This document shows, one piece after another, positions 1 to 60,947 of a stretch of DNA of 64,000 bases. How positions within the stretch are numbered: the stretch's first letter is position 1; each line of letters starts with the position of its first letter. The DNA lies in assembly GCA_037447655.1 (NCBI GenBank), contig JBBHKE010002292.1:66767-130766 (forward strand). The letters are read 5' to 3'. The notes below the pieces were generated by a model, which searched no databases, was not told where the DNA came from, and was given only the letters and a program-made list of their open reading frames with translations. Both the position numbers and the translations under genes were made by a program. This stretch comes from Zygnema cylindricum. Lineage: Eukaryota > Streptophyta > Zygnematophyceae > Zygnematales > Zygnemataceae.

Positions 1-481
1 AAAACCCTTTTTGTCGCTCAAAAAGAGCTTCCCTTAGGACAGGAAAACCGTTATTGAAAACGTCAAAGGGAGAACGTATGTCAAAAGCTGAAAGAGTGGA
101 AATTTTTACCATGCAGCTGAAGAAACAAAAATCAAAAGACATATAAAAGAACGCGGAGTGAAAGTTTCCAAAGATCTTTTCTATAAATATTATTAAACAA
201 AAAAGTTCCTATGTCGTCTTTAACACTCATTAATTCACCGTAGCCTCTTCCTTAACTACAAAGTTTAAAAACGAGTAATATGAACTGATTTACATTTAAC
301 CGTCTCTCAATAAAGTTGCAAAAATTTGAAACATCAATTCCTTCTCCGATGCCACTTAATTACTCACAATTTCTGCTGTATCCTTGAAAAAACAAATTAT
401 TATAAATATCTTTTCTAGAAACCTTTGAAAGTGAGGCGCAAGAAAATATACAGAAAACTAAAAACAAAGAAGTCGACGTAC
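1..481. other. Intron sequence of CLPTM1, no exon recognised
   Basis: This stretch follows the exon 8 donor (gtacgt on the minus strand). The conserved block that should come next in the protein is absent, so the next exon should lie outside the window. An open minus-strand frame at 1-88 after a ctttcag has no resemblance to the CLPTM1 family and was not called. Confidence 0.6.
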
Positions 482-7189
<6,708 letters not shown>

Positions 7190-8170: not shown

Positions 8171-8390
8171 CACACCGTGCATCGCTATTAGTGTTAATGT
8201 TTTTTTTGCCACTTTAAATATCTTTTCTCCGTACATAATTTTCGGATTATGGATCTGACGGTTGCGATTGAAAGCCACGATTCTCACCTTCCAATTGGCG
8301 GTCTCCATGTGAGAAAAGGACAAGTGTGTACGGAGAAAGGATGCTTTGAGTGGCGAAAAAATTATTAACCGTAATAGCGATTCAAGTTGT
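8171..8390. mobile_element. MITE family 1 copy
   Basis: The left end is caccgtgcatcgctattag, with an inverted partner near ccgtaatagcgatt. The internal arms include ttttctccgtaca and tgtacggagaaag. The right terminus is eroded (attcaagttg in place of acacggtg). Confidence 0.7.
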
Positions 8391-10680: not shown

Positions 10681-10689
10681 TGTTTTTTT

Positions 10690-11340
10690 TAGGGTTTAGT
10701 TTATTCAGATTTTTCCAAATATAGTTTTGATAACTTTTAATCTTCTCATCGTGGAGCCTTTCATGATATCATTACAATGAGGTTTACATTTCGATGAGGT
10801 TAATAAAAATAAGTTATTTACCGTTTTAAAAAGGATTTGTATTCGAAATAATGTAGTTAAATTTGATGTCTTTTTATATCATCCACCTTATTTATAACTT
10901 TTCTAGTTTTCATTTCCCTTTAATCGTAACCATTAAAGACTAGGAGAAAGTGTAAAACCACATCTTATTTTTTGTCAGGAGAACATATAGGCTACATAAT
11001 AACTAATTATAATTCACATACTTTTCTCAGTCTTTTGTTTTTTTTTTTTTATTATTCATGGAAGTACTTCAAAAATTGATAGAATAGTACCAACAAACTT
11101 AGTTAAACTTATTTTGACGTTCCTATGACACACAATGACAAGGTCTTGTACCCATTTTGTCAATATTCTAAAATGTGAAAATGGTCTAAGAAAAAAATGA
11201 ATAAAACAAAGTATCCCTAATGACCAGAAGATTTGGTAACAAAAAGTACGGAAACGTAACCGTAATGACGAGAAGGTATGGCAACAAAAAAAATACTAAA
11301 GCACAGAGCCTCGCATAAAGACGATTTCAAAGCGAAAATT
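10690..11340. other. AT-rich intergenic spacer, nothing recognised
   Basis: I see no conserved coding block, RNA gene or clear repeat between the LINE fragment and the SUVH stop codon. Confidence 0.5.
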
Positions 11341-27300: not shown

Positions 27301-30300
27301 TTCCACATTTTATCTTGCACACTTTGCAATATTTGGGCTATGTTCTACATCTAGCATTGTTAACTAAAAAGATAGACAAAATTTTCAACCTTCTTGGGAA
27401 AGATAACAAATTATTCTTTGAGAGATGAACCTCATAAGTGACAGCTTCGAACTTAGCTTGTATCACGCCGTTTATTAACAAACGGAGGCAATAAAACATA
27501 AATGGACTTTTAACAACGTTAGGAAACAAAGTGGAAAACAACAAAAGACATTTTTTTGTCAAAATCTTTAGCATTAAAATGGGAATGGGTCGATGGACTT
27601 GTGAAATCAGGTCATTTTGAACCAGTCAAGTGAGAATCGGTGGTTCTTTTATTGATTGAAAATGTGATTTCATAGACATTAATGTAAGGTTCACATGAAT
27701 CTTCCATTGGTGGCTTTGGATTTTAGATTCTGGATGTCGAGTTTTGTGACTTCTTGTTATCAATTAAATCGTATTGCTGTTACAGCGGTTGACTCATCAC
27801 TTATATATCCACTTGTCAATAAACTTGTCAATAAACAAGGAGTTTGATTAGGACAAATTTTTAAGAACCTCGCAGGAAAGTGGCTTGTGGCCCTATTGAC
27901 ATGTGAATTATGATTGGGTCTAGACTTCCCAACTTTAATATAAGGTAGTAAAAATTGAAGTACCTTGAATGCGCCCAACTACTTTCTTGCCTCCCAAAAG
28001 CGTCATTCCTTTTGTTCTCATCTGCATAAGGAACAGTCCTTTTTTAACTTCCGTTCCTTTTTTATGACCAGCACATTTCTTTTTTGATGGACGACACATT
28101 TCTAAACAACAAGTTCTTCAAGTAGACATTGTTCATTTAAGCATACAAGAAAAAAAAATAAAAATTATGCAATACTTCGTTCAAGATATGTAAATTCCCT
28201 AATTCCATTGATAACTTTAATTTCATTGAAAAAAACAATCTTCTTATTTTGCATTTGTTGTCGCGTTAAATCTGACTATTTTGTTCATTTAAATTCTACA
28301 GTAATTACGTTATTCTAATGAAATACACTTCACTTTTACAGAATTATCACTGTTTTCAGTTTACATGCTCTATCACATTCCAATTTGATTTATTCCATAA
28401 AATTCCGTTTTTATCAATCAATGGTACTTCTGTTGTACAAAATGAACACATTCTATGCATCTAAATGAGATAGAATAACATGGGCATACAAGTGATATAA
28501 AATTGATATAAAAATGAAATGAAATTGGAAAAAAATGGGTATAAAATCAAATTTAAGAAAAATAAACATAAGTAAATAAATAAAATTTGAATAAAATAAA
28601 AATTGGGAATTGGAAAAATTGTAACAGAAATTGGAATTTCTTTTATGTATAAAAACAAAAAAAGGACTTTTAAATTTTACATTATAGGGGCAACCATAGT
28701 CACAAGCATAAGGACTGCCAAAAGAAACAAAAGAAAAAAATCATACCATAGTTAATGCTTTGAGATCCGGTCGCCTTGAAACTGCTTTATCCTCCTTATA
28801 CCTTGCCTTCACTTTTTGAGCCAAAATCTCCGCTTTTGTCCTTCTGTCGCTTGCACACTTAACTATTTTTTTTTTTTTAAATGGTATAGGCGTGGCCTTC
28901 TGAGAAGAAGCCACCCGGTCATCTTCCTCCTACAACCACGCCCGGATTTTGAATGCAAAAGTTTTTAATTGTGCTTTGAGAATGAAATTGAAGAACATAG
29001 GCGCACTTAATGTAAAAATTGACAAAATAAAAGTATGCACAATTGTGTGTGACAAAGGAAATATTAGACGTTTGACTAACCTTGCATGCCAAATTGTAAA
29101 ATGTTTCATATGCACTTCGTGTTCGTCGTACAGCTTTAAAATGCTCATCTGTATCTGTTTTTCCTTCCAAATCTGTGACTGTCACCGGCAAATTTACCAA
29201 CGACAAATCTTGACTTTTGTGATCCTCTTGTTTGTTCTTCTTAACCCCACTATTCCTCTCCACTTTTATTCTCTTATTTGTCTCTTCCTTACATTCCATT
29301 AACTTATTTGTCACTTCTTTTCTTTGCCTTCTTTTTTCAAAGTTCTCCACTTTCTCGAGATTTTGTTTCTTGGGTGAAGGTCTCATTGACAAAGTAGCTT
29401 TTGGTCCGATTTTTGGAGTAGAAACCTGGTCCTCCGTAGAAAGGCAGTCCATAGAAAAAAGTTCAATGTGAATAAATAGAAGCAATTCAAGAATATAACC
29501 AACGACTTTTGAAAAACCCTAAAATACCTTGCAAATACGCCTAACGTAAAGGTATCATAATTCTGTAGACTACAGTACACCGTGTATGGCTATTAGTGTT
29601 AATGTTTTTTTCGCCACTTAAAACATCTTTTCTCCGTACACACTTGTCTTATTATCAATTTGAGACCGCCAATTGGAAGTTGAGAATCTTACCTTTCAAT
29701 CGCAACCGTCAGATTGAGAACCCAACAAGTGTGTGCGGAAAAAAGTTGTTATAAGTGGCGAAAAAAACATTAACACTAATAGCGATACACGGTGTAGTTT
29801 ACAATTTTCAACCAAAATCATAATGAAAAAGATAAAGTTGCTGTTACAAAACTTCAGAGCCGAAATATAAAGCTTTAATGCAAACAAAACCCTCTTTGTC
29901 GCGAAAATCACAATTGGAACATTTTAAGATAATATCATCATTACGGTAAAAAAAAAAAAAAAAATAGTTTGCCGCTTCATCAGGTGTTGTTCCAAAAGAG
30001 CGCTAGTGGGACAAACAATTGCCGTTGTTACCAAGGACAAAAGCCATTGGAGGGGGAAGAAGTGACAAACCAACTATCATTGGAGGGTGGAGAAGTGACA
30101 AAGTGGAGAGTCAATCGGAGCCCAAAGACAACTGATTTGATGCTCTTGAGTCAACAATCCGCAATAAATTGGAAGGCAAAATTAAATTGGAGAGCACATT
30201 AGCAAGTACATATTCAAAATCTTGAGGCGAATCAAAAAAAAGTGGATATTGGTGAGCAAGTGGCAGAGGGTAAGTGGGAGAATAGTTGGCATACTGATAC

Positions 30301-35120: not shown

Positions 35121-36281
35121 GGGAATTGATCATGATATTGTTTCAACCGCTTAAATTTTTGCCGCGCTTGCGAACGTCGACCGTCATAATAAAATTAGCA
35201 ATTCACACGGCCGGCGAGCGTTTACGGTAACAAAACTGCCGCGACCACATGTAAATAAAATGGTTGCAGACAGTAACTTTTTGTCGTTATGTGAGCTCCA
35301 CGGTGAGAGCACTTAGCCGCAACTCGTAGCAGGATCGGTCGTACAAAGGTATTGCCGCTTTGTCGTACACATAAATTACTTCCGCGGACGAAAAAATCGC
35401 GTCACGCTATTACGAATCAACATACTTACATTGACAGCGAAATGTTAGGATATTGGGCGAATCGGCGTCGGCCGAAATCGTGCAGTCAAATTTTTGTTCA
35501 GTTCGCGTCAGTTATGTTTTGTTTCGTTCGGTACTGTACTTTTGTGTCGGTTCGGTTTGGTGCGAGCGCCGACCGGTATTCATTTGTTCGAGTCGCACGC
35601 TGGTCGATTGCGAGGTAATGTTCGTTCGCGAAGCGTGACGCGTTTTTTTCGTCCGCGGAAGTAATTTATGTGTAGGACAAAGCGACAATACTTTTGTACG
35701 GCCGATCTTGCTACGATCTTGTCATTGTAAGTATGTTGATTCGTAAATAGCGTGGCTCAATTTCGTCGCGCGTGACGACGCTCATTTTTTTCATTTAATT
35801 TTAAATGATATTTTTACGCCGGTTCGTTTTATTATAAAATTTTATTTCGTTTTGTGCGTTATAATATTTCCGTACGAGACTTATAGTACTTTCAGTTTCA
35901 ATAGGTTTCGTTTCACTTTGCGTCTAAGTTCACTATAACACTTAGACGATTCAATTTCAATTTTGCGGCTAAGTGCTCTCACCGTGGAGCTCACATAACG
36001 ACAAAAAGTTATTGTCTGCAACCATTTTATTTACATGTGGTCGCCACAGTTTTGTTACCGTAAACGCTCGCCGACCGTGTGAATTGCTGATTTTATTATG
36101 ACGGTCGACATTCGCAAGCGCGACAAAATTTTAACATGTTGAAACAATATTATGAAAGTTAAAGATGTCCAACCGATTGACCGTCAAATTTATTCTCAAC
36201 GGTACTTCAAACGTACGTATTTTGACAAATGACGTAAGTGACTGTGCACAACCAAAACAGTCACTGTCATGATCAATTCCC
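35121..36281. mobile_element. Foldback element, GGGAATTG family, copy 1
   Basis: Its long inverted arms begin gggaattgatcatga and end tcatgatcaattccc. Inner arm matches include ctaagtgctctcaccgtgga and its inverse. The left arm lacks about 120 bp present in the right arm. Flanks tattaaaa and ttttaaaa resemble an 8 bp target duplication with one change. The loop (35444-35640) repeats a 200 bp segment also found at 33483-33680. Confidence 0.75.
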
Positions 36282-39969: not shown

Positions 39970-42900
39970 ATTAAGGTGAAAGTGAATTGAGAGGGGGTGA
40001 GTAAAAAAAACGGAGAGAGATAGAGGGAGAGGGAAAGCCCAAAAGAAAGGGAGAGGCGGATGGAGAGAGAGCCGATCTAGGGGAGGGAGAGGGAGATAGC
40101 CGACTTAAGGGAGAGGGATAGGGCAAATTTAGGGGAGAGAGAGAGGGATAAAATAGGAAAAATGAGAGGGAAAAGGAGAAGGAGAGGAAGAGAAAGGGTA
40201 TAAAAAGTTGAAAAGGGAAGGGAGAGGGAGAGGAAGAGAGAGAGGGAGGTGAGGAAGGCATAAAAAAGGAGAGGGCTTGGAGGAGGGAGATGCGGAGGGC
40301 AGAAAAAATGGAGAGGGAAAAGTGAGAGGGAGTGGGAAACGGAGAAGGGGCGTAAAAATGGGGAGAGAGGGAGAGGGTAGGAAAAATGGAGAAGAAAGAG
40401 GAGAGAGGGAGGGAAAGGGAGAGGGAATGGGAAAGGCAGAGTGGGAGGACAGAAAAATTTAAGACGGAAAGGAAGAGGAAGAGGGAGGGGGAGAAAAAAA
40501 AAGGGTTATGGAAAAGGGAGGGGGAGACAGTAGCAAAAACACAGAGGAAAGGGGAGGGAGAGGGAGAGAAAAGAGGGATAGGACAAAAGAAAGGGAGAGG
40601 GAAAATAAGAGGGAGAGGGAGAGTGAGAGGGCAGAAAAATAGAGAGGGGAATGAAGAGGAAGAGGGAGAGAGAGAGGGCAGGAAAATGGGAGGAAAGGAA
40701 GAGCAAAAGGAAGAGGGAGAGGGAGAGGGCGAGGGTAGAGAATAGGGTTAAGCAAAGGGAGCGGGAGCGGAAGAAGGAAAGGAAGAGGCCAGAAAAAATA
40801 TGGAGAGGGAAAACAAGAGGGAGAGGAAGAGGGAGAGGAAGAGGGAAAGGAAGAGGGAGAGAATAGAAAAAAAGGATAGGGAAAGGGAGAGATAGGGGAA
40901 AAGGGAAAATGAGAGGGGAAAGGCAAAAAAAAAGATAAGGGAAAATGAGAGGGGGAAGGCAAAAAAAAAGATAAGGAAAGGGAAAGAGAAGGAGAGGGCA
41001 AAAAAAAAGGATAGGGACAGGGAGAGGGGGAGGAGAGGGAGAGGGCAAAAATAAGAGATAGGAAAAGAGAGGGGGAGAGGAAGAGGGAGAGGGAGAGGGC
41101 GAGGGCAGAATGAAATGGAGAGGGAAAGGGAGAGTTAGAGGGAGAGGGAATAAATAAGGGGAAAGGGAAAGGGCGAGGGAGAGGAAGAGGGTGAGGAAGT
41201 GGAAGGGGAAAGGGAAAGGGAGAGGAAAAGGAAGAGGTGAAAAAAAAGGGACAAAGGGCGAGAGACAGGATGAGGGAGAGGGAGTGGGAGAGAGCAAAAA
41301 AAGTGGGGAAGGAGAGAGGGAGAGGCAAAACTAAGGGATAACTAAAGGGAGATGGAGAGGAAGAGGTAGAGGGAGAGGGCAAAGAAATTCGAGAGGGAAA
41401 GGGAGAGGAGAGGGCAAAGGAGAGGGAGAAGGAGAAGGAGAGGGAGAGAAAGTGGTAGAGGGCAAAAAAGTGATGGGGAAAGGGAGAGGGATAAGAAGAG
41501 GGCAGAAAAAAGGAAAGGGATAGGGAAAAGGAGAGGGAGAGGGCAAAGAGAACGGAGAGGGAAAGGGAGTGGGAGAGGAAGAGTGAGAGGGAGAAGACAC
41601 AAATAACGTAGAGGGAGAGGGAGAAGGAGAGGCTAGAAAAAGGGATAGGGAAAGGGAGAGGGAGAGGAAGAGGGAGGGGGAGGAGGGGAGGGCAGTTTCT
41701 CTCACCCTCCCTCTCCCCCCCCTCGCCCTCTCTCCCTCTCCCCTTTTTCCCCCTCTCTCCCTACCCCTCTCACTATCCCCCTCTCCTTCTCTCTCTCTCT
41801 GTTCCTCCCTCTCCCCCCTTCCCCCCCTCTCTCCCTCTCTCCATCTCTCCCTCTCGCTCTCTCTCCCCCTCTCTCCCTCTCTCCCTCTCCCTCTCTCCCT
41901 CTTCCCATCTCTCCCTCTCCTTTTCCCTCTCTCACTCTCTCCCTCACCCTCTCCCCTCCCTTTTTCTCCCACTCTCCCGCTCGCCCTCTCTCCATCTCCC
42001 TCTCTCTTCTTTCTCTTGATCCCTCTCTCCCTCTCTTTCTCTTTCCCTCTCACTCCCTATCATTTCATTCCCTGGGAAAAGAAAATAGAGAGGGAAAGGG
42101 AGAGGAAAAGGCGAAGGAGAGGGAGAAGGAGAAGGAGAGGGAGAGAGAGTGGTAAAAGGCAGAAAAAAGTGACAGTGAAAGGGAGAGGGATAAGGGGCAG
42201 AAAAAAGTGATAGGGATAGGGAAAAGGAGAGGGAAAGGGCAAAGAGAACTGAGAGGGAAAGGGAGTGGGAGAGGAAGAGCGAGAGGGAGAGGGAGAAGAC
42301 ACAAATAACGTAGAGGGAGAGGGAGAAGGAGAGGGCCGGGAAAAGGGATAGGGAAAGAGAGAGGGAGAGGAAGAGGGAGGGGGAGGAGGGGAGGAGGGGA
42401 GGAGGGGAGGAGAGTTACTCTCCCCCCCCCCCACCTCCCACCCCTCGCCCTCTCTCCTTTTTCCCCCTCCCTCCCTCCGCCCCCTCTCTCTCCCCCTCCT
42501 CTCTCCCTCCCTCTTCCTCCCAGTCTCCCCCTCCCTCTCTCCCTTTCCCCCTCTTTCTCTCTCCCTCTCTCCCTCTCTCCTTTCTCTCCCCCTCTCTTGA
42601 CCTCTCTCCCTCTCCCTCTCTTCCTCTTTCCATCTCCCCTCTCCTTCTCCCTCTCTCTCACTCTCTCCCTCACTCTCTCCCTCTCCCTTTTTCTCCCACT
42701 CTCCCTCTCCCTCTCTCTTCTTTCTCTTGATCCCTCTCTCCCTCTCTCTTTCTCCTTTCCTCGCCCTCATCTTTTCATTCCCCTCTTTTTCTCCCCATCT
42801 CTATCCCTCTATCTCCCTCTCTCCCAATCGCGGTCTCCCACTCCCTCTCTCTTTCCCTCTTTCTTTCTCCCACTCTCACTTCCTCTCTCTTTCCTCTACC

Positions 42901-43500
42901 CCTTTTTTTCTTCTTTACTCTCTCCCTCCCTCTCCCTCTCCCACCTTTTTTTCCTCTCCCTCTCTCTCTATCCCTCTCTATCCACTCACCCTCTCTATCC
43001 AATCTCTCTCTCTCTCCCTCTTTCTCCCTCGTTCTCTCACTTCCTCCCTATTTTTCTTTCTGCCCCTCTATTTCTTTTCTCCCTTTCTCTCCCTCTACCT
43101 TTCCCTCTCCCTCTTTCGACCCCCTTCTTTTCCCCCTCCCTCTCAGCCTCCCTTTCCCGCTCACTCTCCATCTCCTTCTTCCTCTCCCACCCCTTTCCTC
43201 CCCTACCTCTTCCTCCCTCTCACTCTCCCTTTCTCCCTCTCCTTCTCCCTTATCACTCATTTTCCCTCCTTCCCTCCCTGACTCTCTCTCCTCTCCCCTC
43301 CTTTAACCCTCCTTCTCCTTCCTTTGTCCCGTTCCCTCTTCCTTTCGATCCACTCCTCCCTCCTCCTCCCTTCCTCCTTCCCTGCTCCTCTCCCCCTCTC
43401 CCCCCTTCCCCCTCCCCCTTCCCCGCTTTCCCCCTCTCTCCCTCTCTCCCTCTCCCCCTCTCCCCCACCCCCTCTCTCCCCCTTTTCCTTTTCCATTCAG
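39970..43500. repeat. Alternating purine-rich and pyrimidine-rich tract
   Basis: The plus strand is purine-rich at 39970-41696, pyrimidine-rich at 41697-42059, purine-rich at 42075-42415 and pyrimidine-rich at 42416-43500. The middle two blocks and parts of their neighbours form a tandem duplication of about 700 bp: markers gaagacacaaataacgtaga (about 41593 and 42295) and tcttctttctcttgatccct (about 42005 and 42716) are each present twice. All long frames here are low-complexity artefacts. Confidence 0.9.
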
Positions 43501-43557: not shown

Positions 43558-43962
43558 TCAAACAAGAGAATGATAATGGTTGCGCTCTCCCCACGTAAAG
43601 AGTTTTTGTTCAATATTGGAAGGTGTTTTGCGACCTACTATTTTTTTTACATGTAGTTTTTGCCCTGTGCTTGTAGTACCTGTTTAGTGTTTACTTATGC
43701 ATTTGTTGATTGTTGTTTTCATATCAAGGTCGACGTTAACAATAGCACTTGCTCACAATTTTTCAATTTTTATAAGTCAAAGCTAATTGACCGTCATGTT
43801 TCAGCAAATTGTATTAAATTTGTACCATTGTTTAATTAGATTGCTCACACTTTTTCATATGTCAATGCTAATCAACGGATTGGCCGTCATGTCTGAACAC
43901 AATTGTATCAATTTGCACCATTGTAAGTCGATGGTACAATTTTGTACATATCGAAGTAACGT
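43558..43962 (+). repeat. Left part of a dispersed repeat also found at 51027-51847
   Basis: It shares aacaagagaatgataatgg, ttggaaggtgttttgcgacc and aagtcgatggtacaattttg with 51027-51430. The copy is interrupted at 43963 by the element that follows and resumes at about 46085. Confidence 0.8.
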
Positions 43963-45358: not shown

Positions 45359-45973
45359 GTTGGGTATCGAGGACCGTTTGCCGATATACGTCGATATATA
45401 TCGAATTTCAGGTACCCGATAATCGATATATCGCCTAGATATATCGAAAATCAAAATATCGCGATATATCGCCAATATATCGTATCGTCAATATATCGAG
45501 GCATTTAAAAAAAAAAACTAAATTTTTCACAGGTCTCCAAAGTCACGTGCCTTCGGACAAGGTGACCGTAAAATCTTTGCCGAAAAAAAGTACGGTTTTT
45601 TCCTGAAAGTCAGCAGAGTGAAGGAGATCTCTAAGGTTAATTAACGCGGTACACTTGTGAAGTACACGTACGTAATACGCAAGTACGGATTTACATACGA
45701 AAATGGTCGGTTTGTCAGTTACATTTTACGGCGTCTACCTTTAAGTCACGGAACGCAAATCACGTCGTACGTCGCGTATCAGACAATTTGTCTTTATCGC
45801 TAAAATAACATATTATATAAAATGTTAAATTTATAAAATACTATATATCGCGATATATATCGCGATGAATTATGTTGGTCTCTGTACCATATATCAAAGA
45901 TTCTTCTCGATCGATATTCGATATATCGAATATCGAAATTATCGCATTATGAAATTACCCGATACCCAACAAT
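45359..45973. mobile_element. MITE family 3, copy 2
   Basis: It runs from gttgggtatcgaggaccgtt to tacccgatacccaac, with cgatatatcg-rich arms. It aligns with 19638-20453 but lacks about 200 bp of that copy's interior. Confidence 0.75.
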
Positions 45974-47961: not shown

Positions 47962-48904
47962 TAAGTAATTTTTGTACTATTCAAGACGTCCGTACGGGCA
48001 TTTGTAGACGCGACCCTTAACGACACAACAATTGACGAAAAATCGGACGGTCACGAACGAAGGATAGACGGATGAAGACGCATTACTGCAGGTGGCGGTT
48101 TCATGATGAGTTCAAAGGTAGGTGAAAGTAGGCCCTTACAATATGACCTTAAGACCCATATTGTATTAGGACCTATTCGGACCAATTAGAACATTTGGAC
48201 CAAAAATTGGACCAATTAAAACATTCGGACCAAAAAAATTTGTTTACACCGTCAGATTCGGACGATCGGACGGTCGCTGATCAAAGTAGCGATCTAAGAC
48301 GATCACATGAAAAGCCCATAACACAACTCACGATAAAGGCGCCGACCAAAGGCCTACCATAAAAACGCCTACTTTTGAACTATGGTTTCATCTATATTCA
48401 TTGACAGGTTCGAGCAACCAAGATCTACGGTTAAAAACGATTGCCGGGGGGGTACTTTGAATGTGACCTGATCGTTGAGGTCGCCCAAAGGACAAAGCTA
48501 CCCGTTTGCTGACGTCGGCCGGGAGACACGCTGTTTACGGGTGCAGACGGACGGAAAGTCGGCCTATTTAAAGGTTTCCTTGCGGACAACCAAAGGTCTA
48601 TAATTTTAATAAAGATGTACAAATATCCGATGAGTCTTGTCCTTGCATTTGAAGTCTTAAACCGAACTGATTTCTTTGTCGGCCGCAAATCGAAATACGT
48701 CATACGAACGTCAAAGAAGTATTAATTGGCGTTCTTTGGGACTTCGGACGACTGGCATAAGTCCAAGAAAGTATTCCAGTCGACAAACACATGAGAAATA
48801 GCAAGTACCACAGTAAATTTAGTCCAACTGTGGTGGCTCTCGTCCTCTTTCGAGTGAATTTATAGTGCGGCCTGTACTTCTGCACTGTACTGTACTGTAC
48901 TGTA

Positions 48905-49121
48905 CACCGTGTATCGCTATTAGTGTTAATGTTTTTTGCGCCACTTAAAACATATTTTCTCCGTACACGTTGGTCGGATTGTGGATCTGACGGTTGCGAT
49001 TGAAAAGTAAGATTCTCAGCTTCAGATTGGCAGTCTCAAACTGAAAATCGGACAAGTGTGTACGGAGAAAAGATGTTTTAAGTGACGAAAAAACTATTAA
49101 CCCTAATCGCGATACACGGTG
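48905..49121. mobile_element. MITE family 1 copy in the left duplicate
   Basis: The termini caccgtgtatcgctattagt and ctaatcgcgatacacggtg are flanked by TA. The same insertion is present in the right duplicate at 54298, so it predates the duplication. Confidence 0.85.
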
Positions 49122-50450
49122 TAGTTTTGGACTTTCCAGCGACTTGTAGGCCAGATACCGAATATATGAAACAGTATTATTTTATCCAGATTTACAATAT
49201 TCAATCGAAGATTTGCACGATACTGTGTTTGATTTTTAGCGGCTGTTAGCAAGGCAAAAATCTGCAAACCGCGAAGCACCCTCCAAGCTCCAGCTTTCTT
49301 GGTGTTCTTTCCATCCGGTCAGCTGGATAGTCACGTGGTTCACATTTTTGGACAGTTAGAATCTTTCTTGGAGATTGTCAAACATAGAATCGATATTCCG
49401 GTTCAGTTGCCTTGGATATTATTTACGTACTGTACTTGCAAAATGCCAATACGGTATACTAAATCAATAAGCCGTCAAGTCCACATTAGTATCTGTATGC
49501 CACTGCATTAAACGATATATTGTGAAGCTACGCCTGTGTACCAAACCGGTTATATGCACACTATAATGTGTTACAATCTGAAAAATAAGCGATATTCTTA
49601 TGGAATTGATTCTACCATAGCACTTGTTCTTTGTTCGAGGCACAGATGCCGTTTAGGATTTTCCGAGCATGTCGGCCAATAAGCGCCGGCATGAATTTCT
49701 TTTTTACGCCGTTCGATTGCCCTGGAAGTCGCGCGATATCACGACCGTTTCAATATGATGTACAACATTTTTACATCATAAGTAGGTGATGTTGCTGGCT
49801 GCAAGATATCCTGTACAATGTACTCTTGTTCAGAGATACAAAGTGAAAAGAAATGGTAGAATGAAACAGGAAGGCTCTTTTGCACCTCCACACTATTTTA
49901 GTTGAAACATTGAAAAGTTAACTCATTGAGGGCAGGATAGTTTACTGGAAAGTCTCACAGTATTCTTTTTACCTTTTTCTTTTTTTTGAAGCCAATGTTA
50001 TTTTAGGATAATCTCTTCATTTCCTCTGTTCTTTACTTCTTTTACATGAGATTGCGTCATAAAAGGCTTAAGCATCTTTTTTCCTTTTAAAATATACTTT
50101 TTAACTCTTTTTCTTTCGTTTTCTAAATTGTCAGTCTTTTAAAAAAATTGGTCTTCCAAATTGAATTTGTGCTGACATTGTCTCCAAACCAGCTTTTAAA
50201 AATCACGTCTGTGTAATATTTAGCTTTTTAAGCTTCTCACCATTCTTCTCCCTTTTGTAACTCTGAGGACCAGTTGCTGGTTCTAATGGCTGTTCTTCTA
50301 AAGAGATTCTATTCATCTTTTATTTGACAGTTCTGTTGTGATTAACTAAGGAGGTGTCATCCATTCTTTGAGTGTTTTCAAGCGAGCTTTGTCTCTTGAT
50401 TTTACACTTTTTAAGACAAGAATAATCCTTTTAAAGCAAGATTAACCTCA

Positions 50451-50701
50451 ATGGATGCCCTAATGAGTAAAAGTTTCAATATTACCAGCTCCTACTTTTC
50501 TGCAACAGCTCAATTTTCCGGCAAAACCGACAGCTCTAATGTTTGTTGTTTTAAGCGAAACATAACCAACCAACTAGTAGTTAAACTGACAGATAAACTA
50601 TCACAAGGTTATGTGCGTCAAAGACAGCGGAGAAGTTATGGAGGCTGTATGGTTAGGATGGAGGGAGGAGAAGGAAGTGGCCAAGGAAAAGTTGTTACTG
50701 G
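50451..50701 (+). pseudogene. Truncated exon 1 duplicate of the UVR-ApaG gene
   Basis: The frame [20 protein letters not shown] onward matches the intact gene at 56860 for about 83 codons, with few changes (F for L at residue 16, KR for RQ near residue 35). At base 50702 the match stops and the sequence becomes a reversed, uncomplemented copy of 57261-57058, then a gap. The frame therefore ends artificially after about 10 unrelated codons. This could be a true truncated paralogue or a second full gene that is misassembled here. Confidence 0.8.
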
Positions 50702-50905
50702 CCTGTATTTGTTTTTAGGTGAGAATTCTTAGAATTCGTTAAATTCTGAGTGGAGAAAGCGACAGCGGAGATAGTTGACGGCTAAGTTTTCAGCGTTGTA
50801 AAGTCTTTGAAAATGTAAACAAAGTTGTAGAAGAGGTCTTCAAGGTCGTGGAGGTCATTGTTGAAAAGGAACCGGTGAAGGAAGAGGAGGGAGGTAGGAT
50901 TGGTA
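50702..50905. other. Mirror (reversed, not complemented) copy of 57058-57261, likely assembly artefact
   Basis: Base 50702 pairs with 57261 and base 50905 with 57058, reading one forward and the other backward on the same strand. I checked many consecutive 10-base blocks and found no mismatch. The segment abuts the N gap. Confidence 0.95.
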
Positions 50906-50915
50906 NNNNNNNNNN
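50906..50915. other. Assembly gap of 10 Ns
   Basis: Ten Ns; the true length of missing sequence is unknown. Confidence 1.
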
Positions 50916-51026
50916 GGTAGCTGAATGTTACCATGTTTAAACTAAGTTAACACAATACTGTACTGGTTGTTAGGCAATTAATCGTAACTGTATAACTTTT
51001 ATACACTCATTTATGTGTTACATTGA

Positions 51027-51847
51027 ACAAGAGAATGATAATGGTAGCGCTCTTTTCACATAAAGAGTTTTTATCCAATATTGGAAGGTGTTTTGCGACC
51101 TGCTGTTTTTTTACATGTAGATTTTGCCTTGTGGCCGTAGTGCCCGTTTAGTGTTTACTTTTGCATTCGTTGGTTGTTGTTTTCTTATGAAGGTTTGACG
51201 TTAAAAATTTCAAAAATCACAATAGTTGCTCACAAATTTTCAATTTTTATGAGTCAAAATTGATTTGCCGTCATGTTGAACAAATCGTATTAAATTTGTT
51301 CCATTGTGTATTTACTCACATATTTTCAATATGTCAATGCTAATTAACGGATTGTTGGTCATGTCATAACACAATTGAATCAAATTTGTACCATTGTAAG
51401 TCGATGGTACAATTTTGTACAAATCGAAGTAACCTCTTATGTTGAACCAAATTGATTTACTTGTTAATTTAGTTATGTATCGTTTATATAGTTATATACA
51501 AATATTGGTTGTTGTTTTCATATGAAGGTTGACGTTAAAAATTTAAAAAATCAGAATAGTTGCTCACAAATTTTCAATTTTTATGAGTCAAAACTGATTT
51601 GCCGTCATGTTGAACAAATTGTATTGAATTTGTTCCATTGTGTATTTACTCACATATTTTCAATATGTGAATGCTAATCAACGGATTGGCGGTCATGTCG
51701 GAACACAATTGCATCAAATTTGTACCATTGTAAGTCGATGGTACAATTTTGTACAAATCGAAGTAACCTCTTGTGTTGAACCAAATTGATTTACTTGTTA
51801 ATTTAGTTATGTATCGTTTATATAGTTATATTCAAATATTTTATTTT
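51027..51847 (+). repeat. Dispersed repeat with an internal 330 bp tandem duplication
   Basis: 51183-51484 and 51516-51823 repeat each other (markers tcacaaattttcaatttttat and aagtcgatggtacaattttg). The first part also matches 43558-43962. It serves as the empty-site reference for the nested insertions at 43963 and 46114. Confidence 0.85.
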
Positions 51848-52857: not shown

Positions 52858-52978
52858 TTTATTTTAAGTACAAATATCTTATGAGTCTTGTCCTTCTATT
52901 TGAAATTTTGAAATCTTAAACCGAACTTTTTTCTTTGTCGGCCGCAAATTGAAATACGTAATACGTACGTCCAAAAGC

Positions 52979-54094
52979 TAGTGTTGTGTATCGGTAAGGA
53001 TTTGCCGATAACCGATATGGACATTTTTTCGGGTACTCGATAATCGATATATTGGTACGATATATCGCCATCGGTGTTATCGCCGATAAATAACCGATAT
53101 TTATCGGTTATTATTGGCGATAACACCGATATCGATAACTATTGGCGATAATTGTACAGACCGTACAGATAAATATGGTGGCTGTAAATGGCGGCAGTCT
53201 GACAAATGTGTTCAGTCCATAGATGTCCCGTGTGCATATTACTCACGGTATAAACTAACGAATACTACGTACGGTACGCATCAAACGATGATGAGAAATA
53301 AATAAAATGCGTACCATACTATCTTCGCGTACAATATTTTTACAATTACGTACAGTGTCCGTCCTTGTTTGTACATTTTAGGGGTTTTTTACGGGATTTT
53401 TTAGGGTTTTCAAGGTACATTGTCGTACGTTCATTTATATTTTAGTACGGCTGCTGTAGATATTTCGTACTACCAGGTTTTTTAGGGTACACTTTCATAC
53501 AATTTTGTACATTTATGATGAATATTCGTACTTTTTTAAAAATTTATGGATTTTCTAAGATTTCGCTTTTCGTACGTTATTGTACATGGTTGTACTTCAA
53601 AATTTACACAAATTTTACGAAAAGTATGAAAAGACGAATACTACATAGTTTTCGTAAAAAAGTTAAAATCCGTACGAATTGGCCATCAACGGTTCAGTCT
53701 GCTATGTTCGTCAGTTCTTTTTCTTTTTTAAATAGTTTGATTCTCGAATTTTACAATGTATTCTAATTTTTTCGTTTCGGTAGTATAGTTTTAGAACTAT
53801 AAAGTATTATTTTATATTTGTCTACGTTTACGTGCTGCGCTGTCCGTAACAATTATCAGTTACATAGATACGGAACAGATTGTTATATGTGGCATGCCAT
53901 GCTATATAATGTAAATAATGTAAAACAGTATATTGTAAAGTACTATAGTATGCGTACTATATATTTTCTAAGTTATCGCCGATATGGAATTTGTCGGTCT
54001 CCGACCGATATATCGGGACCTCTCACAGTTCGATAACCAATAACTATCGGTATCGGTATTATCGCGATAAGTTTTTTACCGATACACATCACTA
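52979..54094. mobile_element. MITE family 3 related element (TAGTGTTGTGTATCGGTAA ends)
   Basis: The ends tagtgttgtgtatcggtaa and ttaccgatacacatcacta are inverted. The interior is rich in ccgatat and tatcgg. The left duplicate at about 48711-48722 shows the same place without the element, confirming an insertion. The 8 bp flanks match only roughly. Confidence 0.8.
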
Positions 54095-54502
54095 CAAAAA
54101 AATATTAATTGGCGTTCTTTGGGACTTCGGACGACTGGCATTAGTTCAAGAAAGTATTCCAGTCGACAAGCACATGAGAAATCACAAGTACCACACTAAA
54201 TCTAATCCAACTGTGATGGCTCTCGTCCTCTTTCTAGTGAATTTATAGTGCGGCCTGTACTTCTGCATTGTACTGTACAGTACAGTACTGTACTGTACAC
54301 CGTGTATCGCTATTACTGTAGTGTTAATGTTTTTTTCGCCACTTAAAACATCTTTTCTCCGTACACGTTTGTCGAGTTGTGTATCTGACGGTTGGAATTG
54401 AAAGGTAAGATTCTCAGCTTCAGATTGGCAGTCTCAAAATGAAAATCGGACAAGTGTGTACGGATAAAAAATGTTTAAAGTGACGAACAAAACTATTAAC
54501 CA

Positions 54503-54770
54503 TACTATGTACCTCCGGATCTAAAACTTTCGTCTTCTTCCCCACTACACGCCATTTCCTACTTCCCGCTACTATGTACCTCCGGATCTAAAACTTTCGT
54601 CTTCTTCCCCACTACACGCCATTTCCTACTTCCCGCTACTATGTACCTCCGGATCTAAAACTTTCGTCTTCTTCCCCACTACACGCCATTTCCTACTTCC
54701 CGCTACTATGTACCTCCGGATCTAAAACTTTCGTCTTCTTCCCCACTACACGCCATTTCCTACTTCCCGC
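54503..54770 (+). repeat. Four tandem copies of a 67 bp unit
   Basis: Units start at 54503, 54570, 54637 and 54704 with tactatgtacctccggatct and look identical. A fifth start at 54771 runs into the LINE coding part. Confidence 0.95.
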
Positions 54771-55464
54771 TACTATGTACCTCCGGATCCGGCCTGCGGC
54801 CGCTTCCAACCGCACGAACACCGGCAAAACCATAGCTCGACATGTGGGCGTGGCCGCACGCGACGCGGCTAGGAGGAAGGAGCGTGATTATGCCCATCGC
54901 GATGCTATGGATGGTTTCATTCCGATGGCGGTGGAGATATTTGGTTGTTTGGGTGTGGCTTTGGACGAGTTTCTCCGTGCTTGTGGTCGGCGTTCGTTTG
55001 AGCGGCGGGGACCTGGGAGCCCTTCAGTTTCAGTACTTACTTCTTTTTACCGTCAACGTTTATCAGTGGCCCTTCAGCGAGTGCAGGCTTCTATCCTCCT
55101 TGGATCGTCTATTGCGGCTATGGATCGTCGACGTGTCCCGGAACTCCCGCCTCGTGCTCCTCCGGGGTTCGGGGACTTACGTGGTTGCTTTGCATAGATT
55201 TTTAGTTATGTTAGGGTTTTGTTGTTAGGTGTTAGCTTTTTCTTTTGGTGTTTCGTTTGTTGTTTTTTGCTTTTTTGGGTGTTTTCCGTCTACTAGTTGT
55301 CATTTTGTGGTTTCGTTGCTTTTGCCTTGCTTATCGTTTTTGTTTTTTCCCCCAACATATAGTTTTTCAATTTTTGCCGTGCTACTTCTCTTTTGTTCCC
55401 CATGAACTTAGATGGTTTACCATCGCGCTTTTTAATAAAGTCAGCCCCCCTTTTTTTTTTTATA
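54771..55464 (+). mobile_element. 5'-truncated LINE fragment, plus strand
   Basis: The frame 54775-55197 encodes ARHVGVAARDAARRKERDYA, FIPMAVEIFGCLGVALDEFL and SVLTSFYRQRLSVALQRVQA, the same C-terminal region as 9640-10680. The 3' part ends atggtttaccatcgcgcttt, aataaa and a T-rich run. No reverse transcriptase core is present. Confidence 0.8.
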
Positions 55465-55996
55465 ATAGCGATACACGGTGTAGTTTTGGACTTTTCCAGC
55501 GACTTGTAGGCCAGTTACCGAATATACGAAACAGTATTATTTTATCCAGATTTACAATCCTCCGTAGAAGATTTGCGCGATACTGTGTTTGATTTCCAGC
55601 GTCTGTCAGCGAGGCAAAAATCTGCAAACCGCGAAGCACCCTCCAAGCTCCAGCTTTCTTGGTGTTCTTTCCATCCGGTCAGCTGGATAGTCACGTGGTT
55701 CACAATTTTGGACAGTTAGAATCTTTTTTGGAGATTGTGGAACACAGAATCGATATTTCGGTCCAATTGCCTTGGATATTATTACGTACTGTACTTGCAA
55801 AAAATACCAATACCGAATTGATTCTACCATAGCACTTGTTCTTTTTTCGAGGCACAGATGCCGTTCAGGATTTTCCGAGCATGTCGGCCAATAAGCGCCG
55901 GCGTGAATTTCTTTCTTACGCCGTTCGATTGCCCGGGAAGTCGCGCGATTTCACGACCGTTTCATTATGATGTACTTCAATTTTGCATCATAAGCA

Positions 55997-56206
55997 CCAC
56001 AGCGAATCGTTATTAGCGTCAAGATTTTTTTCGCCACTTAAAACATATTTTCTCCGTACACACTTGTCGGATTTTGGATCTGACGGTTGCGATTGAAATG
56101 TAAGATTCTCAGCTTCCGATTGGCCGTCTCAAAATGAAATCCAACAAGTGTGTACGGAGAAAAGATGTTTTAAGTGGCGAAAAAAACCTTGACGCTAGTA
56201 ACGATT
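55997..56206. mobile_element. MITE family 1 copy, insertion private to the right duplicate
   Basis: The arms ttcgccacttaaaacatatt and atgttttaagtggcgaaaaa are inverted. The left duplicate at about 49775 runs straight through the same place, and catcataag is found on both sides here. Confidence 0.8.
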
Positions 56207-56859
56207 TTACATCATAAGTAGGTGATGTTGCTGGCTGCAGGATATCCTGTACAATGTGCACTTGTTCAGAGACATAAAGTGGAAACAAATGGTAGAGTGA
56301 ACCTGGAAGGCTCTTCTGCACCTCCACACTATTTTAAGTTAACTCATTGAGGGAAGGACAGTTTACTGGAAAGTTTCACAGTGTTCTTTTACTTTTTCTT
56401 TTTTTTGAAGCCAATGTTATTTTAGGATAATCTCTTCATTTCCTCTGTTCTTTTACATGAGATTGCGTCATAAATGACTTAAGCATCTTTCGTTCTTTTA
56501 AAATATACGTTTTAACTCTTTTTGTTTCGTTTTCCAAATTGTCAGTCTTTTAAAAAAATTGGTCTTCCAAATTGAATTTGTGCTGACATTGTTTCCAAAC
56601 CAGCTTTTACAAATCATGTCAGTGTAATATTTAGTTTTTTAAGCTTCTCACCATTCTTCTCCTTTTTGTAACTCTGAGGACCAGTTGCTGGTTCTAATGG
56701 CTGTTCTTCTAAAGAGATTCTATTCATCTTTCATTTGACAGCTCTGTTGAGACTAACAAAGGAGGTGTCATCCATTCTTTGAGTGTTTTCAAGCGAGCTT
56801 TGTCTCGATTTTACACTTTTTAAGACAAGAATAATCCTTTTAAAGCAAGATTAACCTCA

Positions 56860-59800
56860 ATGGATGCCCTAATGAGTAAAAGTTTCAATATTACCAGCTC
56901 CTACCTTTCTGCAACAGCTCAATTTTCCGGCAAAACCGACAGCTCTAATGTTTGTTGTTTTAGGCAAAACATAACCAACCAATTAGTAGTTAAACTGACA
57001 GATAAACTATCACAAGGTTATGTGCGTCAAAGACAGCGGAGAAGTTATGGAGGCTGTATGGTTAGGATGGAGGGAGGAGAAGGAAGTGGCCAAGGAAAAG
57101 TTGTTACTGGAGGTGCTGGAACTTCTGGAGAAGATGTTGAAACAAATGTAAAAGTTTCTGAAATGTTGCGACTTTTGAATCGGCAGTTGATAGAGGCGAC
57201 AGCGAAAGAGGTGAGTCTTAAATTGCTTAAGATTCTTAAGAGTGGATTTTTGTTTATGTCCTTGTTTCTGTTATTCTATCATTCTTGATCAGCTAATTTT
57301 GTAGTTCAAATTTGTGAAAGCGATTGGAGACTTATTTGTGGTTTCCCCGCACTAAATGCGTACTGTATGGTTTTTTTTAGTATAACACACGTATAGCATA
57401 GGGAAATCTCATGTAGCGTTTCCGGTCGTTTTCAAACATTTGAGTTTGTTAGTACCCATATTTCTGTTATCATTCTTGTTAATATCTGTGGATTTTAAGC
57501 AAAGAGAACGTCCGTAGTAGATATAATGTGATTATTTCTTAAGTATTGCTGAGGCTTATGTCCTTTAGGCAATCGTTCAACTGCTGCAGCATGTGTTAGA
57601 AATTTATAAGGGAATTTTTGGTACATCGTAATTGGCGTTACTTGTACAGTAGTCATAATATTTGTGTAAATAATTGAACGATTTTGTAGAATATGCACAT
57701 TTTCCTGTATGGTGTTCGGTGATCACTAGCCAGTAAGCCAGTAATAGTGTATGTGTAATCACCTTTTTATGATTGCTGCTGGTTTTTTGTACTATTTACG
57801 CATATATATGCACACACATTTACACACTGAAGTATGTGTGTGTATGTCATTCATGGTCGTCTGCTGGTTCCTGGAGGATAAGTAAACCTAAGTGTATACT
57901 GTTTATTGTCAACTGGAGAGCGCAAATAAGAGTAGTGTAGCCAATACTGCGCAAACTTTGCTTGTTTTTGAACTCAGAATGGATAATCCCTTTTTTTTTT
58001 CTTTCAAGTTTTGAGTAGTTCTGCATTTCTTTCTTAGCTCATTTGACTTCTCTTTGTCTTTCCCTTTTAGTGATTATAGCCTGTGTTCGCTTCAGTCACC
58101 ATTTGGCCCTTTCTATGGTGCCACCTGTCAGTTTACAGGAAACTGAGGCATTTTTCCGGGCTTTTTTTTGAATTCTGACACAGGATTACACTGAAGCTGC
58201 AAAAGTTCGTGATTTGATGAAGTCTCTGGAAGAAAAGGATCCAGCATTGCAACTCCGAAAGCTGCTTTCTCAAGCTATTGCAGAGGAGCGATACGCTGTA
58301 AGTATTATTGATTCAAAAAGAAATGACAACTTCACTACACTGCCCATCTCTATGAGAGTTAATCGCATACGAGTGCATGTTTTTTTGAAAAAATCATAAG
58401 TTAGAGTTAAGGAAGTTGATTAAGTGGCAATAATGAGCCACGTGTTGAAACATAGTTTTGTGTAGGTAATTTTTAAAAAGTGCGAACGCTTACAATTTAT
58501 TAAGCTGAATGGTGATGGGCAGTGTAGTGAAACTGGTAATTTTTTAGGCTCTGGTGGCTCCTGCTTTACCTGCGATGAAGAGCGAGTTAATCCTCATTGT
58601 ATTGATACTTTTAAATTAATAAATAGTCCACACTATTGGTGGAGTGTAGCTGAAATCTGTATTTCCTTTTTGCCGTTTTCATATATTTCAATGTGTCAAT
58701 AGTTTCTATTTAGTAATTTCAATGGGACAGTCTAAGGTGTTTAATCTCTGAACATGTGTCGTAGATCATATTGGTTTTGAAGTACTTAATAATTTGGAAA
58801 CCGGAACTAAATAAAGATTGTAATAGAAATTGTATGTATAGTATTTTGTTCCTCAAGTGGCCTGTTGAGTGGGTCTTTTGGGAAGACAGGATGCAGCTCA
58901 ATATCGGGATAAGTTGAGGCAAATTGCTCCCCCAGAAGTCGAGGAACCAAAATCAGTTCCTAGATGTAATAGTAACACCGTGACAAAGGTAAAACTTTCT
59001 GATCCCGACTTTAATGCTTTGTTTAGCATTTTGAACTTACCTGGACGTTTTTAAACATAAGGTTGTATTAGGTCGTGTCTTTTCTGTCTGACTTTTTTCT
59101 TTTTTTTGCTGGTGTCCTGCAATTCTTATATTTGATGGCATGGTCAATATGCCTACAAAGGTCAGGATAATTCTTGAAGTTATGGTAATGATTAGATTCA
59201 GTCTTGCAAATAATTCTAGAATTGTTTATTGTTATGTCTCACTGTTTTTGGTATGTATCATCATGTTGCCAATATCATTAGGTCAAGAGAACAAGCATAT
59301 GTTTATGTAAAAGTTGGAATAAATCTTATGTTACTAATTTTCAGGGCATTTTTTGTGCTATATGGGTTTTAGGGCGTGAGAGTGATTGTTCGTAGCATTT
59401 ACGTTAGGGATCGGAGCACCCCTTCAAGACAACAATTTTTCTTCGCTTATCGAGTTAGAGTCTCCAATGAGGGCACTCGACCTGTCCAGCTTTTGAATCG
59501 CCATTGGGTGATTACCGACGCAAATGGTCGAGTAGAAGAAGTGAGGTGAGTGCCTCGTGAATTACTATTAGAGTAAAGAAATTATTCGAGTGGGTTTTTT
59601 TAGCTATTAATCTTGATTGATCTTGATCTTGATTGAGGTAAGAGAGAATTGAACGATTATTGACCGCTTGACGTATTAGTGTTATAAACAGAAAATCAGT
59701 GTAGTTAACGCTATTTGATGGTCAGAGGCCAAAAAGGACCAACACTGAATCAGCGTTTGGAACACTAATAATGGTGAAGTCAGCCTGTCACAACAGGTTT

Positions 59801-60947
59801 TTGGATCCTGATCATGGTGTTGAACCCTCTGGTTTGTATGTACACTAGTTATTTTATGTTTCCTTTTATTGGTGAATTTTTACTAAGATTTGTACGTTCT
59901 TGGTACAAAATTGTACAGAAATGTTCCAAGAAATACAATCTCAGTCAACAGCTGGAGGTTTCATAGTACAGACAGTTTAGTCAGATATATTATTCTTGTT
60001 GAGCTTTTCCCTTTTGTCTTTTTGGAAAGGATTGCAAAACGGTGTATTGTTAATGTTTTGACGTTCTCATTTACTAGTAGCCAACTTATAGGTTTTACTA
60101 CTGCCAGGTTAAGAAAAGTTCGAAATGGGGAAAAATCATTGAAAAATATCATTATCTTTATGAAATTTACATGAAATTGTTTGTGTTGATCGGGTTCAGA
60201 GGCCCAGGTGTGATTGGTGAACAACCTGTATTGCGACCTGGAGCCAGTTTTGAATACACATCAGCTTGCCCCTTACGAACACCTTCTGGAACTATGGTAT
60301 GTATTAACCACTTTTCTAATTTTGATTTCTTCAGTTCTGGTATTCAGTAATTGCTTTGCTGTTTTGTAGTTGTTCAGTTATGGTATACAATTAACTCTTG
60401 TTCATATATTATGTGTCCAGTTATGGTATACAGTAATCTATTTTCGATTTTTCCTTTGTTCAATTACAGTATTCAATAATGCCTTCTCTATTTTATTTAT
60501 TTTTCAGCTTTTAATGGTATTGAGTCTGATGCGATAAGCTGGACCAATCATCACTTTATTATCCTTTTTGTCGATACAGCCATCAATGTATCTTATTCGT
60601 GAGGGATTTCGCATTTTTTTATTTTTTTTTGTGTGTTTTTTTTCTAAACAGCATTAGTTGACTCTCCTTGAACAGCAGGTCACGCTGTTCACGTTGGTCC
60701 TGTAGTTTAGGTTCACGTATTCTTCTCCAGTTGCTCCCTCTCCCTCTCCCCTCCTCTTTCCCTCCCTCCCCCTCCCTCTCCCTCTCCCTCTCCCTCTCCC
60801 TCTGCATTCTTAACACAAAATTGTTGTTATTGTTTGCTGAAACAGGAGGGAGAGTATGAAATGATTTATTGTGACGATGTTGTTCCCGACCCATTCGAGG
60901 TAAAAGTTGGTCCTTTCGGTTTGAATGTGAATGATGATGCTTTGTAA
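56860..60947 (+). CDS. UVR-ApaG domain protein, probably plastid-targeted
   Basis: Exons are 56860-57210, 58184-58297, 58890-58988, 59373-59545, 60200-60296 and 60846-60947. The phases join into 311 codons plus TAA, with GT-AG at every intron. Residues 1-55 are rich in Ser, Thr and Asn with few acids, like a plastid transit peptide. Two UVR helical hairpins follow: [20 protein letters not shown] (from about 105) and [20 protein letters not shown] (from about 145). Residues 189-311 form an ApaG (DUF525) beta-sandwich with [15 protein letters not shown], the glycine motif GPGVIGEQP and TPSGTMEGEYEM, as in bacterial ApaG. UVR motifs mediate protein contacts in UvrB/UvrC and Clp adaptors; ApaG folds occur in bacteria and in the SKIP16 and FBXO3 F-box proteins. 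The biochemical role is unknown and I do not assign one. Start chosen as the first ATG of the open frame, conserved in the left duplicate. Confidence 0.9.
60725..60803 (+). repeat. (CTCCCT)n tract in the last intron of the UVR-ApaG gene
   Basis: A pyrimidine run of ctccct units ends about 43 bases before the exon 6 acceptor (aaacag). It may extend the polypyrimidine tract of that acceptor. Confidence 0.9.

What the first reader, a model, noticed from the sequence alone, without database searches (positions are those of the whole stretch)
50702..50905. A 204 bp stretch is the mirror image (reversed but not complemented) of 57058-57261
Reading 50702 to 50905 forward gives the same bases as reading 57261 down to 57058 on the same strand. 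It includes the reversed exon 1 end and donor region of the UVR-ApaG gene. DNA synthesis and recombination keep strand polarity, so a mirror copy of this length and fidelity has no known biological route. It begins exactly where the duplicated exon 1 stops and ends at the 10 N gap, which points to a gap-filling or read-handling bug. The true continuation of the left duplicate is therefore unknown, and a second full gene copy could be hidden here.
Basis: seen in the sequence. Interest (0 to 1): 0.9.

Follow-up and report, generated by a model that had tools for sequence, protein, structure and literature searches.

The report
Backwards-copied DNA at assembly gaps
Short stretches beside gaps in this green-plant-type genome sequence are nearby DNA written backwards without complementing it, which living cells are not known to do and which most likely comes from a computer error during genome assembly.

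Summary
It is one case of a pattern. The other side of the same 10-N gap is a mirror too: 50916-51021 equals 51407 down to 51302, 106/106. So is the window's left end: 1-273 equals 590 down to 318, 273/273, and window base 1 proved to be the first base after a 6,030-N run. In 280,000 bases of the same contig there are four N runs. All 4 right edges and 1 of 4 left edges carry exact mirrors, and all 10 non-low-complexity mirror matches of 20+ bases involve these edge pieces. A relative's UVR-ApaG protein matches the finding's piece only when the window is read backwards. I conclude that these are assembly artefacts: contig tips at gaps hold sequence reversed as text but not complemented, probably from gap filling or end extension. 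The program is not identified and no reads were available. The left gene copy's true continuation is unconfirmed, though the mirror may itself preserve about 151 bases of it. Low interest as biology; useful as a quality-control signature.

The parts
50702..50905 (.). Mirror piece L: plain reversal (not reverse complement) of 57058-57261, between the left contig and the N gap
   Evidence: 204/204, zero extension at both edges; read backwards it encodes residues 63-121 of a relative's UVR-ApaG protein
57058..57261 (+). Source-like sequence of piece L: exon 1 from the internal ATG at 57059, donor site at 57211, start of intron 1
50906..50915 (.). 10-N gap, the only N run in the window
50916..51021 (.). 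Mirror piece R: plain reversal of 51302-51407, between the N gap and the right contig
   Evidence: 106/106 exact; 109/110 when extended to 51025
51302..51407 (+). Source of piece R, in the first unit of a 334-bp tandem repeat; the second unit (51632-51741) is 92.7% like the 110-base piece
1..273 (.). Mirror piece C: plain reversal of 318-590; begins directly after a 6,030-N run that ends one base left of the window
   Evidence: 273/273; N run C1730:60737-66766; composition favours 1-273 as the reversed side
274..317 (.). 44-bp stretch between piece C and its source; orientation undetermined
318..590 (+). Source of piece C, read as native orientation
50649..50701 (+). Last 53 bases of the left contig before the mirror, identical to 57058-57110; un-reversed, piece L overlaps them and runs 151 bases on
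50463..50702 (+). Left UVR-ApaG copy: residues 1-80 of the relative's protein, then cut off
   Evidence: tblastn, 75% identity
56872..60944 (+). Right UVR-ApaG gene, six coding blocks (56872-57234, whose alignment overruns the donor at 57211; 58181-58297, 58890-58988, 59373-59546, 60198-60296, 60846-60944)
   Evidence: tblastn of P0001; UVR and ApaG domains by Pfam in P0001

Best explanation
The mirror pieces are not DNA of the organism but an assembly artefact. At N runs the tip of the contig was written with sequence reversed as a text string and not complemented. One geometry fits all five pieces seen: take the last few hundred bases at a gap (257, 328, 492, 564 or 590); the part next to the gap (39-273 bases) is the plain reversal of the part furthest from it. 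For piece L this means that the mirror was made from the left contig's own sequence, so it may preserve, backwards, the 151 bases that should follow 50701. Shown: exact mirrors at 4 of 4 right edges and 1 of 4 left edges of N runs. Inferred: that a gap-filling or end-extension routine handling mostly the right flank did it. The confidence is for 'assembly artefact by string reversal at some step'; the first two rivals are narrower routes within it and their odds are shares of it.
For: Four N runs lie in C1730:1-280000; right edges carry mirrors of 273, 106, 39 and 170 bases, one left edge a mirror of 204; all 10 exact mirror matches of 20+ bases that passed the complexity filter involve these pieces (2629 low-complexity rows dropped). 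Piece C was found first, and its gap was found only afterwards, when the flanking sequence could be fetched. A second contig of 32,758 bases has no N run and no such match. Of 300 random 600-base tiles away from gaps, 12 had any plain-reverse hit: 6 are sources of the edge pieces or paralogues of those sources, the other 6 are 70-75% matches such as low-complexity tracts give. Piece R is nearer to 51298-51407 (99.1%) than to its paralogues (92.7%, 86.5%), so the copying is local. The left join shares no base with the source beyond it. Backwards, piece L is good coding DNA (E 2e-25). Composition with sources masked: 6 of 267, 12 of 358 and 132 of 771 same-length windows look as reversed for pieces C, L and R. 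Local reassembly with extensions from both flanks of an unclosed gap is a described polishing step (PMC4237348, passages).
Against: No reads, so spanning support was not tested. Three of 4 left edges show no mirror; two of those are CT- or GA-rich tracts where one could not be seen, but the left edge at C1730:219810 is ordinary sequence and has none. Only 280,000 of 469,194 bases of the contig and one other contig, out of 352.8 Mb, were examined. The tool says that withheld stretches read N, so the two N runs of about 6 kb may not be assembly gaps. No paper describing such an artefact was found. The third composition test is uninformative.
Confidence: 0.98

Rival explanations
1. Route within the artefact: reads were reversed but not complemented before assembly (for example mate pairs turned round with a reverse-only command), and local contigs built from them were attached at gap edges.
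For: Would give error-free mirrors lying close to their sources. [quoted passage not shown]
Against: Reversed reads share no long words with true contig ends, so overlap joining should not attach them; the bias to right edges (4 of 4 against 1 of 4) points to code that treats the two flanks differently.
Confidence: 0.15
2. Route within the artefact: a late step wrote fill pieces or small contigs into the scaffold with a plain reversal.
For: Exact copies and a blunt left join.
Against: A scaffolder would normally leave N on both sides of an inserted contig; there is none between 50701 and 50702 or near 51021. The sources lie inside the same contig tips rather than in the gap.
Confidence: 0.2
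3. Real DNA: an unknown process copies or joins a strand with reversed 5'-3' polarity.
For: The sequence as deposited. Reversed-polarity transcripts have been claimed by Seligmann (recalled; one search listed related papers only).
Against: All five pieces touch N runs and are exact; elsewhere in 312,758 examined bases no non-low-complexity mirror match of 20+ bases was found apart from their sources and paralogues. No polymerase or ligase is known to do this (established knowledge).
Confidence: 0.002
4. Chance or low-complexity mirror symmetry (H-DNA-type mirror repeats).
For: The window holds long low-complexity mirrors, e.g. the GA tract at 5888-6050, and plain-reverse matches of 70-74% within the GA-rich tract near 40-43 kb.
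Against: The pieces are of mixed sequence (purine 0.557, 0.618, 0.472) and far longer than shuffled maxima.
Confidence: 0.001

Closest known systems
Assembly gap-filling and contig-extension errors (e.g. wrong partial fills; PMC4237348, passages read)
   Same: Wrong sequence at the edges of a residual gap
   Different: Such errors keep strand polarity; here the string is reversed without complementing, which the searches named here did not find described
Missed-adapter fold-back reads at contig ends (recalled)
   Same: A local copy folded back on the contig tip with a spacer (44-280 bp)
   Different: Fold-backs are reverse complements; these are plain reversals
False haplotypic duplication in draft assemblies (recalled)
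   Same: Two similar, roughly collinear segments placed head to tail with a minimal N run between them
   Different: Could explain the duplication and the 10-N gap, not the mirrors
Mirror repeats forming H-DNA (recalled)
   Same: Mirror symmetry on one strand
   Different: Those are polypurine/polypyrimidine tracts; these are mixed sequence, including coding DNA
'Swinger' and 3'-to-5' inverted RNA claims by Seligmann (recalled; related papers seen in a search listing only)
   Same: Sequence reversed without complement (recalled)
   Different: Contested claims about RNA; nothing to do with contig ends

Membership tests
Assembly artefact (string reversal at contig ends) | Mirror pieces lie at contig ends or gap edges | tested here: met
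   5 of 5 pieces directly abut an N run
Assembly artefact (string reversal at contig ends) | Copies carry no divergence from a local source | tested here: met
   273, 204, 106, 39 and 170 bases, all exact
Assembly artefact (string reversal at contig ends) | Same defect at other gaps of the assembly | tested here: met
   4 of 4 right edges, 1 of 4 left edges in C1730:1-280000; other contigs with gaps not examined
Assembly artefact (string reversal at contig ends) | No raw reads span the joins | not testable with these tools
   no reads held
H-DNA mirror repeat | Homopurine/homopyrimidine strand bias | tested here: not met
   purine fractions 0.557, 0.618, 0.472 for the three window pieces
Fold-back (missed adapter) artefact | Arms are reverse complements | tested here: not met
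   longest reverse-complement match in the window is 49 and lies elsewhere (35274-35322 with 35963-36011)
Pilon partial gap fill | Residual gap of the default minimum size (10, recalled) and k-mer 47 anchoring | tested here: inconclusive
   two N runs are of 10 and the overlap is 53 bases (K=47), but the default of 10 was not confirmed in the passages read, the paper says default runs add no new Ns, and other tools may also leave 10 N

The most novel reading that the evidence does not exclude
The mirrors are real chromosomal DNA, made by a process that copies or joins a strand with reversed 5'-3' polarity, for which no enzyme is known; such places would then also be the ones that defeat assembly and leave gaps.
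Probability: 0.002. Interest if true: 0.97.

Novelty: not a real feature. Interest (0 to 1): 0.2.

Why it matters
As biology it most likely does not matter. As quality control it does. Reversed-not-complemented tips will not align to reads, transcripts or relatives in ordinary searches, so they look like orphan sequence and can truncate genes (here the left UVR-ApaG copy). With mirrors at 5 of 8 examined N-run edges the defect looks systematic in this contig, and comparing an assembly with its own plain reversal finds it in seconds. It could also disturb methods that use the reversed assembly as a null, as one repeat-annotation paper did (PMC4981986, passage).

Tried and rejected
Chance and low complexity: rejected with Markov and block-shuffle controls. 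H-DNA mirror repeat: rejected on composition. Complement-only copies: longest exact match 21 bases, the 14 rows shown being low-complexity, plus one 40-column match at 87.5%. A first polarity scan put 50701-51000 lowest of 1274 windows and 1-300 fourth among the non-overlapping windows listed, but its training set still held the source of piece L, so I do not rely on it; the redone test is. 'Extension string appended to the contig end' was my first model: it fits piece L but not piece R, whose source starts 280 bases inside the contig. The tip model in the main explanation replaced it.

Organism: the transposon-like ORF at 9853-10695 gave no homologue at E <= 0.001 among 4409 candidates. The assembly has 352.8 Mb in 2689 contigs. 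Zygnema cf. cylindricum SAG 698-1a_XF (359.8 Mb, 3,587 scaffolds; 2.22% heterozygosity; SPAdes, WENGAN, scaffolding and gap closing with Platanus-allee; PMC11096116, passages) is a lead, not an identification: the sizes differ and no sequence was compared.

Papers: searches showed no report of reversed-not-complemented assembly artefacts; I read the listings, plus passages of PMC4237348, PMC5765664, PMC5897528, PMC7202002, PMC6733440, PMC4981986 and PMC11096116. The two papers were judged unrelated from title and abstract start. The listing was not followed up; one search failed on time.

Full report
What was checked. The plain reversal of 57058-57261 was compared with 50702-50905: 204 of 204 bases agree, and the match does not extend by a base on either side. 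The piece ends at the only N run in the window, 10 N at 50906-50915. The finding is exact as stated.

It is one of three in the window. On the other side of the same gap, 50916-51021 is the plain reversal of 51302-51407, 106 of 106 bases (109 of 110 if taken to 51025). At the left end, 1-273 is the plain reversal of 318-590, 273 of 273, with 44 bases between. After low-complexity rows were dropped, 7 exact mirror matches of at least 18 bases remain in the 64 kb; all 7 involve these pieces: the three themselves, one through the 53 bases that the two gene copies share, and three through relatives of the repeat behind piece R. In 100 block shuffles the longest such match was 15-25 bases, and in 30 order-3 Markov simulations 18-25. 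Complement-only matches reach 21 bases and reverse-complement matches 49.

The contig around it. The window is C1730:66767-130766 of an unnamed assembly of 352,776,454 bases in 2689 contigs. I could fetch C1730:1-280000 of 469,194 bases (with the window itself) and all 32,758 bases of contig C1000. Four N runs occur: 60737-66766, 117672-117681 (the one in the window), 178441-184314 and 219811-219820. Window base 1 is the first base after the first of them, so the mirror at 1-273 also abuts an N run. The two further N runs also have mirrors at their right edges: 39 bases at 184315-184353 (source 184604-184642) and 170 bases at 219821-219990 (source 220215-220384). In sum 4 of 4 right edges and 1 of 4 left edges carry an exact mirror. 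Of the three left edges without one, two are CT- or GA-rich tracts where none could be recognised; the third, at 219810, is ordinary sequence and has none. All 10 exact mirror matches of 20+ bases that passed the complexity filter (2629 rows dropped) involve these edge pieces; C1000, without N runs, has none (210 rows dropped). Of 300 random 600-base tiles away from gaps, 12 had a plain-reverse hit: six are sources of the edge pieces or paralogues of those sources, and six are 70-75% matches such as low-complexity tracts give. One caution: the tool says that withheld stretches read N, so the two runs of about 6 kb may not be assembly gaps.

Which side is native. The right-hand gene at 56872-60944 is an ordinary UVR-ApaG gene: a relative's 307-residue protein (P0001; UVR and ApaG domains by Pfam) aligns to six blocks in order. 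The left copy encodes residues 1-80 and then stops matching. The same protein against the plainly reversed window gives one hit, 50905 to 50729, residues 63-121, 84.7% identity, E 2e-25. Piece L is therefore the backwards one. For piece R, three forward copies of the repeat (51298-51407, 51632-51741, 43841-43934) show the native sense. For piece C only composition speaks: with sources masked, 6 of 267 windows of the same length look as reversed as 1-273; for piece L 12 of 358, for piece R 132 of 771, the last being uninformative.

Anatomy of the joins. The left contig matches the right copy base for base for the last 127 bases up to 50701 (= 57110), then the mirror begins with no shared base. 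The join is about 100 bases before the exon 1 donor at 57211. The four right-edge pieces have sources 44, 280, 250 and 224 bases further in, and the distance from the gap to the far end of the source is 590, 492, 328 and 564 bases; for piece L, measured in the left contig itself, it is 257. One rule covers all five: within a tip of that length, the part next to the gap is the plain reversal of the part furthest from it. For piece L the reversed part is longer than half the tip, so 53 source bases survive in the left contig and the other 151 survive only backwards. In that reading piece L comes from the left contig, not from the right gene, and the two agree because exon 1 is conserved between copies. 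This is inference; it predicts that the true continuation after 50701 equals 57111-57261.

Surroundings. The left and right segments resemble each other in roughly collinear blocks: 43561-43960 with 51026-51433 (83%), 48617-48719 with 52868-52977 (83%), 48712-49102 with 54095-54501 (90%), 49104-49452 with 55463-55813 (92%), 49603-49782 with 55815-55994 (94%), 49769-50701 with 56205-57110 (93%). Some blocks are repeats and short out-of-order matches exist (45406-45446 with 53027-53067), so collinearity is only suggestive. A tandem duplication and two haplotypes placed side by side both fit.

Best explanation. Contig tips at N runs were written with sequence reversed as a text string and not complemented, most likely in a gap-filling or end-extension routine; the bias to right edges suggests code that handles the right flank by reversing it (inference). 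The Pilon paper describes local reassembly and consensus extensions from each flank of an unclosed gap with k-mer 47 (passages), and a 10-N residual gap is by recall its default; that is a lead to the kind of step, not an identification. Five literature searches showed no description of such an artefact.

What remains open. No reads are held here. Most of the assembly was not examined. Searches for further copies of the sources of pieces L and C in the assembly did not complete.

Noticed in passing
1-590; L003:737-6766: Second exact mirror, 1-273 against 318-590, directly right of a 6,030-N run that ends one base before the window.
   Followed up: yes
50916-51021: Third exact mirror, on the right side of the same gap, copied backwards from 51302-51407.
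   Followed up: yes
L015:4315-4353 and L018:9821-9990: Two more exact mirrors (39 and 170 bases) at the right edges of N runs further along the same contig; sources L015:4604-4642 and L019:215-384.
   Followed up: yes
54503-54789: Tandem array of a 67-bp unit, 4.3 copies, 100% identical.
   Followed up: no
51170-51840: 334-bp tandem duplication, two copies 95% alike, related to 43749-43960.
   Followed up: partly
9853-10695 (-) and 54836-55197 (+): Two related transposon-like ORF fragments (matching DNA blocks 79-81% alike); no Pfam hit for either, and no homologue found for the first.
   Followed up: partly
12779-13177 (-): Part of a SET-domain protein (PF00856, E 2.5e-08).
   Followed up: no
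40100-43300: About 3 kb of mostly polypurine/polypyrimidine low-complexity DNA; similar tracts lie at the left edges of both 6-kb N runs.
   Followed up: no
8172-8391, 29576-29796, 48904-49123, 54297-54501, 56006-56185: Family of roughly 200-bp repeats on both strands; two of them (48903-49123, 56005-56206) match their own reverse complement at 78-80%, as a small inverted-repeat transposon would.
   Followed up: no
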